Source of the DNA: Chloroflexota bacterium
GTDB lineage: Bacteria > Chloroflexota > Dehalococcoidia > Lucifugimonadales > UBA3495
Direction: 5' to 3'
Assembly: GCA_028875055.1 (NCBI GenBank)
Contig: JAPPGG010000024.1
Location: 1 to 49,333 of the forward strand
DNA: 49,333 nt
The position numbers were made by a program, and so were the translations under genes. Under the pieces are notes generated by a model. It ran no database searches, was not told the origin of the DNA, and saw nothing but the letters and a program-made list of their open reading frames with translations. This document shows, one piece after another, positions 11,324-24,641 of the stretch (position 1 is the stretch's first letter; each line of letters opens with the position of its first letter).

Positions 11324-11914
11324 ATGATTGACACTGCGGAGATGCTGAAGGCCTTCGCTCCCCACCGGGGCGATTCCATAGTTATCCCCGGTCGCGGAGG
11401 ACGGCACTGGACCCAGATAAGCGACCAGCCCAACCGGGACCTGCCCGTGGGCGACCCGGCCATGGGCGGGCACGCATCCTTCGGGCTGGGCGTGGCGCTG
11501 TCGCTGCCCGACGAACGGGTGATCCTGTTTGACTCGGAAGGCGACGTGCTGATGAACATGGGGGCCCTGCCGACCATCGCGGAGAAGGCGCCGAAGAACT
11601 TTTACCATTTCATGCTGGACAACGAGTGCTACGCCACTACCGGCGGCCAGCCCGTGCCCAATGCCAAGAACATCGCCTACGAAGTTATCGCCAAGGGTTC
11701 GGGCTACCCGGCCACCTATGCCTTCGACAACCTGGAAGACTTTGCCACCCACCTGGAGGAGATTCTGGAACAGCCGGGGCCGGTGTTCGTGGCCTTGAAG
11801 GTCAATCCGGAAGTGGAGAATACGCCCATTGGGGCTCGGGTCCGGTGGCAGACGCGCTCCCGCACCCAGGTAATTGACGACTTAAAGGACGAACTGGGTA
11901 TTGAGGGGCCGTAG
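11324..11914 (+). CDS. TPP-dependent decarboxylase-like subunit, diphosphate-binding half
   Basis: A 196-residue protein equivalent to the C-terminal (PP) domain of ThDP enzymes, partner of the preceding gene. GDPAMGGHASFGLGVALSLP is the usual approach, and FDSEGDVLMNMGALPTIAE with LDNECYATTGGQ is the cofactor motif. The classical GDG-S reads S-E-G-D here, so the metal-binding Asp is a Glu, while the Asn of LDNE is kept. This may be normal for its subfamily. The pair resembles sulfopyruvate decarboxylase ComDE or phosphonopyruvate decarboxylase; the two cannot be told apart. ATG has GCGAGGA upstream. Confidence 0.82.
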   Translation: MIDTAEMLKAFAPHRGDSIVIPGRGGRHWTQISDQPNRDLPVGDPAMGGHASFGLGVALSLPDERVILFDSEGDVLMNMGALPTIAEKAPKNFYHFMLDNECYATTGGQPVPNAKNIAYEVIAKGSGYPATYAFDNLEDFATHLEEILEQPGPVFVALKVNPEVENTPIGARVRWQTRSRTQVIDDLKDELGIEGP

Positions 11915-11997
11915 TTCGCGGGTTAGCCCCCGCTCCCCGATGCATTTCCGTACCACCGAATAGAGCGGGACAAGGCCTCCGCAATAGTCCAGTTCCC

Positions 11998-12007
11998 CCG
12001 TTCTGGG
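11998..12007. repeat. target-site duplication, left copy
   Basis: CCGTTCTGGG directly abuts the left end of the MITE-like element; the identical 10-mer follows its right end at 12204-12213. Confidence 0.85.
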
Positions 12008-12203
12008 CAGGGCAATCGCGTTTTAATTGAATGTCATGCTGAGCGAAGCCGAAGCATCTAAGATCTATCCCTGGAACCACCTTCACTACCCGCAGCCGGG
12101 CTGAGGATGAGGACTTCAGGCCCTTCGGCAAGCTCAGGGCGACATGACTTCTGCCCACCGCATTGTGCCCCCTGTAGCCTGATTCTATAGTGCAATTGCC
12201 CTG
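12008..12203. mobile_element. MITE-like element with TIRs and 10-bp TSD (copy A)
   Basis: A 196-bp non-coding element. Terminal inverted repeats are CAGGGCAATCGC at 12008-12019 and GCAATTGCCCTG at 12192-12203 (one mismatch). Sub-terminal inverted arms hold ATGTCATGCTGAGCGAAGCC on the left and CCCTTCGGCAAGCTCAGGGC followed by GACATGA on the right. A perfect 10-bp direct repeat flanks it, showing that it inserted by transposition. It encodes no protein, so it would need a transposase supplied elsewhere. A 10-bp duplication fits IS4-like transposases, but that is only suggestive. Confidence 0.85.
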
Positions 12204-12213
12204 CCGTTCTGGG
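12204..12213. repeat. target-site duplication, right copy
   Basis: CCGTTCTGGG, identical to 11998-12007. Confidence 0.85.
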
Positions 12214-12285
12214 GCCCCGGAGTGCGGCCTACGAGCGGATGGGATACCCTTGGCAATCAACGGTTGCGAAAGGCGATTCGCCCAA

Positions 12286-12315
12286 TTGACAAGCAACCCC
12301 TGGTGTTTATATAAT
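12286..12315 (+). promoter_or_regulatory. consensus promoter of tRNA-tuf unit
   Basis: TTGACA at 12286-12291, an 18-bp spacer and TATAAT at 12310-12315. Transcription should start near 12322, reading into the hairpin at 12345 and then the tRNA-Thr gene. Confidence 0.85.
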
Positions 12316-12344
12316 TTTCCACGTATCAAGCAGGCTGGCGGAAT

Positions 12345-12369
12345 GGCCCCGACTTTGCGGGGCCTTTTT
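12345..12369 (+). terminator. intrinsic terminator / attenuator before tRNA-Thr
   Basis: A 7-bp stem GGCCCCG/CGGGGCC with loop ACTTTG is followed directly by TTTTTC. It lies 30 nt after the predicted transcription start and 20 nt before the first tRNA, so full expression of the tRNAs and tuf from this promoter requires readthrough. Confidence 0.75.
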
Positions 12370-12389
12370 CTAGTCTGAAGATAGTGTCT

Positions 12390-12465
12390 GCCCCTGTGGC
12401 GCAATTGGAAGCGCAGTCGACTTGTAATCGACAGGTTAGGGGTTCGAGTCCCCTCTGGGGCTCCA
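12390..12465 (+). tRNA. tRNA-Thr (TGT)
   Basis: Cloverleaf read by eye: acceptor GCCCCTG/CTGGGGC with a T-T mismatch at the sixth pair, D-arm GCGC/GCGC, anticodon loop CTTGTAA (anticodon TGT), T-arm AGGGG-TTCGAGT-CCCCT, discriminator T and encoded CCA. Confidence 0.93.
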
Positions 12466-12539
12466 TAGATTACTATCCAAACCCAGAATTGCCGAACTGG
12501 GTTGAAGCTTTCTCCGGAAGCGGAGAAGGGCACAGGCAG

Positions 12540-12795: not shown

Positions 12796-13980
12796 ATGGC
12801 CAAGCAGCAGTTCGATCGTTCCAAGCCCCACGTAAATGTGGGCACCATCGGTCACGTTGACCACGGCAAGACCACCCTTACAGCCGCGATCACCCGGGTG
12901 ATGGCGGAGAAGGGCATGGCCAACTTCCGGGACTTCGGCAGCATCGACAACGCGCCGGAAGAGCGGGAGCGGGGCGTAACCATCGCCATTGCCCACGTGG
13001 AATACGAGAGCGACACCCGTCACTATGCGCACGTGGACTGCCCTGGCCACGCTGACTACATCAAGAACATGATCACCGGCGCCGCCCAGATGGACGGAGC
13101 AGTGCTGGTGGTAAGCGCCCCGGACGGCCCCATGCCCCAGACCCGGGAACACATCCTCCTGGCCCGCCAGGTGGAAGTGCCCCGCATCCTGGTCGCCCTG
13201 AACAAGGTGGACATGATGGATGACGAGGAGTTGCTGGAGCTGGTGGAACTGGAAGTCCGTGAGCTGTTGAGCACCTACGACTTCCCCGGCGACGATACCC
13301 CCATAGTTCGGGTCAGCGCCCTCAACGCCATGGAGGGCGAGCCGGAAGCCATGGAGGGCGTAGCCAACCTGGTCCAGGCTATGGACGAATACATTCCCGT
13401 TCCCGAGCGGTTGACCGACCGCCCCTTCCTTATGCCCATTGAGGACGTATTCGGCATCAAGGGCCGCGGCACCGTGGTTACCGGCCGGGTGGAGCGCGGA
13501 ATGCTGAAGCAGGGCGAAGAGATCGAAATTATCCGGTCCGGCGACGTACGCCGCACCGTGGCCACCGGCCTGGAAATGTTCCACAAGCTGCTGGACTCCA
13601 CTGAAGCCGGCGACGCGGTAGGAATTCTGCTGCGCGGCGTGGACCGGGACGAAGTGGAACGCGGCCAGGTGGTGGTGAAGCCCGGTTCCATGCAGCCGCA
13701 CCGGCATGCCGAGGCCGAGGTGTACGTGCTGAGCCGTGAGGAGGGTGGCCGCCATACCCCCTTCTTCTCGGGTTACAAGCCCCAGTTCTACATCCGCACC
13801 AGTGACATCACGGGCGAGATTACCCTGCCCGAGGGTGTGGAAATGGTCATGCCTGGCGACAACATCACCATGACCCTGAACTTGATTACCCCCATCGCCC
13901 TTGAGGAGCGGCAGCGCTTTGCCATTCGTGAGGGCGGACGCACCGTGGGGTCCGGCGTCATCACCAGGCTGCTGGACTAA
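12796..13980 (+). CDS. tuf: elongation factor Tu
   Basis: A 394-residue GTPase that brings aminoacyl-tRNA to the ribosome. P-loop GHVDHGKT at residues 19-26, switch region with [18 protein letters not shown] at about 81, [10 protein letters not shown] at about 136, and intact domains 2 and 3 ([32 protein letters not shown]). The segment after switch I reads TIAIAH where TINTAH is commonest. AGGAGAGTAAGACAAGAA precedes the ATG. It is co-transcribed with the three upstream tRNAs and probably with rpmG and secE. Confidence 0.99.
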
Positions 13981-24598: not shown

Positions 24599-24641
24599 AG
24601 GATTTTAGATCCTTCGGCTTTGCTCAGGATGACATTACTTA
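24599..24641 (-). mobile_element. MITE fragment (copy B)
   Basis: On the minus strand this reads ATGTCATCCTGAGCAAAGCC followed by GAAGGATCTAAAATC, closely matching the left arm of the intact element at 12031-12065. No terminal repeat is present, so it is a remnant. It lies in the 24.2-24.7 kb spacer together with the decayed antitoxin gene. Confidence 0.65.

What the first reader, a model, noticed from the sequence alone, without database searches (positions are those of the whole stretch)
11998..12213. Intact miniature inverted-repeat element with terminal repeats and a perfect 10-bp target duplication
The 196-bp non-coding element at 12008-12203 begins CAGGGCAATCGC and ends GCAATTGCCCTG. 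It is immediately flanked on both sides by CCGTTCTGGG. This combination is direct evidence of transposition into a single-copy site just upstream of the tRNA-tuf promoter. The interior arms are also inverted (ATGTCATGCTGAGCG against the complement of CAGGGCGACATGA). No transposase is in the window, so it must be mobilised in trans.
Basis: seen in the sequence. Interest (0 to 1): 0.7.

Follow-up and report, generated by a model that had tools for sequence, protein, structure and literature searches.

The report
ISAs1-type MITE with empty-site proof
A 196-base stowaway DNA element without genes of its own, present in about 40 copies in this Chloroflexota genome, jumped in next to a tRNA-tuf operon, almost certainly using the enzyme of a resident insertion sequence of the ISAs1 family; it is a clean new example of a well-known kind.

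Summary
Window 12008-12203 is a 196-bp non-coding element with imperfect terminal inverted repeats, flanked on both sides by CCGTTCTGGG. The same genome holds about 40 copies (75-100% identical, 33 full length). Twelve of the 33 have perfect 10-11 bp duplications exactly at their ends and 20 have at most one mismatch, against 1 of 1056 shuffled flank pairs. The nearest relative (G003, about 97% identical flanks) has this locus empty, with a single copy of the target; three other copies also have clean empty sites there. The ends (CAGGGCAATCGCG...) and the 10-bp duplication match insertion sequences of the ISAs1 family. One intact ISAs1 element in this genome (1237 bp, TIR CAGGGCAAACGCATTCTAAATTG, duplication GCATTGACCG) has a transposase scoring 428 bits against NCBIfam's ISAs1 model. 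A congener's ISAs1 end matches 19 of the first 20 MITE bases. So this is a non-autonomous MITE mobilised in trans by an ISAs1 transposase; that last step is inferred. 32 of 33 full copies lie between genes. I detected it only in this genus. It is a new family of a known kind. Not in the finding: its parent family, and an interior resembling an older palindromic repeat found elsewhere in the order.

The parts
11998..12007 (+). left copy of the 10-bp target site duplication CCGTTCTGGG
   Evidence: single copy CTGTTTTGGG at the empty site in G003
12008..12203 (+). 196-bp ISAs1-type MITE, non-coding
   Evidence: 40 copies in own genome; empty site in G003
12008..12031 (+). left terminal inverted repeat and subterminal bases CAGGGCAATCGCGTTTTAATTGAA, like ISAs1-element ends
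12032..12149 (+). interior module bounded by opposed hairpin arms (GTCATGCTGAGCGAAGCCGAAGCATCT at 12033-12059; CCCTTCGGCAAGCTCAGGGCGACATGAC on the right)
   Evidence: the left arm occurs stand-alone in other families of the order; limits approximate
12180..12203 (-). right terminal inverted repeat (CAGGGCAATTGCACTATAGAATCA on the minus strand)
12204..12213 (+). right copy of the 10-bp target site duplication CCGTTCTGGG

Best explanation
The element is a non-autonomous miniature insertion sequence (MITE) of the ISAs1 family. It carries only the ends that an ISAs1 transposase recognises. A DDE transposase made elsewhere in the genome binds the two CAGGGCAAT... ends, cuts or copies the element, and joins it to staggered cuts 10 bp apart, which on repair give the 10-bp duplication. 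It inserted upstream of the tRNA-Thr/Tyr/Thr-tuf promoter after this lineage split from its nearest held relative. Shown: copies, ends, duplications, empty sites, and an intact ISAs1 element in the same genome. Inferred: which transposase acts on it, and that it is still mobile. At this site it is probably neutral, since the promoter lies outside it and a relative without it keeps the same promoter.
For: 40 copies, 33 full length, 15 of them at least 95.9% identical to the window copy; mean pairwise divergence of these 15 is 2.4%. Perfect 10-11 bp duplications in 12 of 33 and at most one mismatch in 20 of 33; control 0 and 1 of 1056. Empty site at this locus in G003 with one target copy and at three more copies. 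Intact ISAs1 element at G000:C47 (L031:1386-2622), 1237 bp, TIR CAGGGCAAACGCATTCTAAATTG, duplication GCATTGACCG; transposase matches NF033564 ISAs1 at 427.9 bits (cut-off 70) and PF13808 + PF01609. ISAs1 ends nearer to the MITE's: 19 of 20 in congener G004, 18 of 20 in a broken copy at C58. A second ISAs1 element (C11, L032:569-1841) also shows a perfect 10-bp duplication, GCTCTTACAC (sequence). A 175-bp mini-element (L120) has 23 bases of one end identical to the intact element's end and a 10-bp duplication.
Against: The intact IS matches the MITE in only 16 of the first 20 end bases; the better-matching ISAs1 remnant in this genome (C58) has a broken transposase gene, so the true partner may be lost or not assembled. 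Only the ends, not the interior, resemble the IS. No transposition was observed.
Confidence: 0.93

Rival explanations
1. A MITE mobilised by another IS family that happens to give 10-bp duplications; the ISAs1-like ends are a coincidence.
For: The intact ISAs1 element's ends are only 16/20 identical to the MITE's. I did not inventory all other IS families in the genome.
Against: Three lines agree: CAGGGCAAT...-type ends on ISAs1 genes in two species, 10-bp duplications on two ISAs1 elements of this genome, and a mini-element L120 whose right end is identical to the intact IS end over 23 bases.
Confidence: 0.05
2. A conserved regulatory or structural repeat (REP/BIME-like) kept in intergenic regions for a function, not a mobile element; the flanking repeats are incidental.
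For: 32 of 33 full copies are intergenic where about 75% of the sequence is coding; interior hairpin arms occur stand-alone in other genomes.
Against: Exact duplications at the element ends, well above control, and four empty sites in a close relative. Intergenic bias is what selection against gene disruption gives.
Confidence: 0.02

Closest known systems
ISAs1 insertion-sequence family (includes the E. coli H-repeats)
   Same: CAGGG-type terminal inverted repeats; 10-bp target duplication, as seen on two ISAs1 elements in this genome; transposase model NF033564
   Different: The MITE has no transposase gene and shares only its ends with the IS
MITEAba12 of Acinetobacter (PMC6382973)
   Same: Short non-coding element, TIRs shared with a co-resident IS (ISAba12), same duplication length as that IS, many copies, trans-mobilisation proposed
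   Different: Different IS, 113 bp and 9-bp duplications; its movement was observed in the laboratory
MITEs of Anabaena sp. 90 (PMC3542288)
   Same: Many short dispersed elements, mostly intergenic (132 of 147)
   Different: Those have no IS with matching ends in the genome, although an ISAs1 element is present
REP / palindromic intergenic repeats
   Same: The interior arms are short palindromic repeats found elsewhere as stand-alone units
   Different: REPs lack IS-like ends with exact target duplications

Membership tests
bacterial MITE | about 50-600 bp, non-coding, no transposase | tested here: met
   196 bp; full copies 195-222 bp; the one ORF of at least 100 aa that crosses it (11802-12533, minus strand) also runs over the neighbouring gene end and tRNA-Thr, so it is not a gene of the element
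bacterial MITE | terminal inverted repeats | tested here: met
   11 of 12 outermost bases pair; several older copies carry CAGGGCAATCGC at both ends
bacterial MITE | target site duplications of constant length | tested here: met
   10-11 bp; 12/33 perfect, 20/33 with at most one mismatch; control 0 and 1 of 1056
bacterial MITE | multiple dispersed copies and empty sites | tested here: met
   40 copies; four empty sites in G003
bacterial MITE | co-resident IS with like ends and same duplication length | tested here: met
   G000:C47 ISAs1 element, ends 16/20, 10-bp duplication
ISAs1-derived (non-autonomous member) | ISAs1-family ends beginning CAGGG | tested here: met
   19/20 to a G004 ISAs1 end, 18/20 to the C58 remnant
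type I MITE (internal-deletion derivative) | interior derived from the parent IS by internal deletion | tested here: not met
   no convincing similarity to the intact IS beyond about 25 bases at the ends; so not a simple deletion derivative of that element; an unsampled parent is not excluded
ISAs1-derived (non-autonomous member) | mobilised by ISAs1 transposase | not testable with these tools
   needs a transposition assay

The most novel reading that the evidence does not exclude
The MITE is a composite: ISAs1 ends captured an older palindromic repeat (GTCATGCTGAGC...GACATGAC) that spreads by its own, unknown mechanism across this order, so one mobile repeat now travels inside another.
Probability: 0.3. 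Interest if true: 0.45.

Novelty: new member of a known kind. Interest (0 to 1): 0.3.

Why it matters
It gives a well documented ISAs1-type MITE family (copies, duplications, empty sites, co-resident candidate helper) in a Chloroflexota genus known here from assembled genomes. Of the open-access papers found that mention both ISAs1 and MITEs, the two I looked into did not describe such a pair, but the library is incomplete. Near-identical copies may also explain contig breaks in relatives, and the polymorphic insertions can serve as strain markers.

Tried and rejected
Structure as evidence: single-strand folding of the element is not unusual (z -0.95). Rfam: only the three tRNAs match in the area. 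Scanning the window for the 12-bp ends with 3 mismatches was uninformative (98 hits). Internal-deletion origin from the intact IS: rejected, only the ends match. My first script for element limits mis-set the end gaps and crashed; it was replaced, and no result is used. Literature searches for the interior repeat gave nothing relevant. A search for small elements with similar ends in 294 genomes of the class gave only three genomes: this one, G086 with a perfect 10-bp duplication, and G199 without an obvious one.

Full report
What is there. The window holds a 196-bp element at 12008-12203 with ends CAGGGCAATCGC and GCAATTGCCCTG, flanked by CCGTTCTGGG on both sides. The ORF upstream ends at 11914; downstream come a perfect sigma-70-type promoter at 12286-12315, tRNA-Thr, tRNA-Tyr, tRNA-Thr, and the ORF at 12796, which from its sequence and the finding I take to be tuf (EF-Tu).

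Copies. In the same genome (3.75 Mb, 75 contigs) the 196-bp sequence has 40 strong matches. One on C38 is 100% identical. Thirty-three are full length. Fifteen full copies are at least 95.9% identical to the window copy, with a mean pairwise divergence of 2.4%; the others range down to 75%. This looks like one recent burst on top of older ones.

Target duplications. Taking the element limits strictly, 12 of 33 full copies have perfect duplications of 10-11 bp and 20 have at most one mismatch; pairing the left flank of one copy with the right flank of another gives 0 and 1 in 1056. The youngest copies keep them best.

Empty sites. In the nearest relative, G003, the flanks are 97-98% identical and joined without the element, with a single CTGTTTTGGG where the window has two CCGTTCTGGG. 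Predicted empty sites for ten other copies were searched in G003: three (L001, L004, L008) match uninterrupted at 95-97% across the junction; the rest gave partial, weak or unclear matches. G002 shows no listed element match between the two flanking matches, though that stretch has diverged. G003 is probably the MAG Chloroflexota bacterium RHO2_bin_36 (JAPPJA): a 4845-base contig of that record carries the MITE end at its end, as does a G003 contig at the same position. Another near-identical MITE piece in G003 starts at base 1 of its contig, as expected if short-read assembly breaks at repeats, so the absence of young full copies in G003 is not evidence.

Parent family. ISAs1-type transposase domains (PF13808) occur at four places in this genome. 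One element, G000:C47 (L031:1386-2622), is intact: 1237 bp, identical 23-bp inverted repeats CAGGGCAAACGCATTCTAAATTG, duplication GCATTGACCG, and a transposase that scores 427.9 bits against the NCBIfam ISAs1 equivalog (cut-off 70) with PF13808 and PF01609 domains. A second (C11, L032:569-1841) has ends CAGGGTCTTTTCATTCT and duplication GCTCTTACAC, and sits against the end of a partial MITE copy. Ends still closer to the MITE's belong to a congener's ISAs1 gene (G004, L072; 19 of 20) and a broken copy at C58 (18 of 20). That ISAs1 elements generally have CAGGG-type ends and 8-10 bp duplications is my own knowledge of the family; here it was tested on two elements.

Related mini-elements. L120 (G000:C15:42850-43024) is a single-copy 175-bp element with one end matching the intact IS over 23 bases and duplication CGCCGAGAAG. 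G086, in another family of the class, has a 203-bp one with duplication GGTTAGGGCG. So ISAs1-type miniature elements probably arose more than once.

Distribution and placement. The MITE, whole or in part, was found in all 5 genomes of the genus and in none of 54 relatives outside it. With a simple codon-usage gene caller trained on the window, 32 of 33 full copies are intergenic although about 75% of the flanking sequence is coding. This is a rough caller, but the bias is large; selection against broken genes explains it.

Interior. The left arm GTCATGCTGAGCGAAGCCGAAGCATCT is found 41 times in this genome within 3 mismatches, mostly inside MITE copies, and exactly, without MITE ends, in three genomes of another family of the order. 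A sister form with C/G exchanged on both sides (GTCATCC...GGATCT) exists. So the interior probably existed as a repeat before it was enclosed between ISAs1 ends; this is inference, and it is the least understood part.

Mechanism and verdict. Best reading: a type-II-like MITE of the ISAs1 family moved in trans (0.93). Shown: mobility in the evolutionary sense, duplication length, and a co-resident candidate helper. Inferred: the actual transposase and present activity. The closest published parallel I read is MITEAba12 with ISAba12 (PMC6382973). New family, known kind.

Noticed in passing
window 12345-12364: A terminator-like hairpin (GGCCCCG...CGGGGCC then TTTTT) lies between the perfect promoter and tRNA-Thr; it is conserved in three congeners while the sequence upstream of the promoter diverges in two of them. 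Possible attenuator of the tRNA-tuf operon.
   Followed up: partly
L120:1501-1675 (G000:C15:42850-43024): A second, single-copy ISAs1-type mini-element of 175 bp with a 10-bp duplication; one end matches the intact IS over 23 bases.
   Followed up: yes
L118:402-604 (G086): A 203-bp ISAs1-type mini-element with perfect 10-bp duplication GGTTAGGGCG in another family of the class.
   Followed up: partly
L032:569-1967 (G000:C11): A different ISAs1 element (ends CAGGGTCTTTTCATTCT) inserted so that its duplication touches the end of a partial MITE.
   Followed up: partly
L037, L040, L041, L042, L045: Some older MITE copies carry an extra palindromic piece of about 24-28 bp (e.g. CCCTTCGGCAGGCTCAGGATAAACTGCG) in the left or right interior arm.
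   Followed up: no
window 24607-24633: A stand-alone relative of the interior arm, GTCATCCTGAGCAAAGCCGAAGGATCT, minus strand.
   Followed up: no
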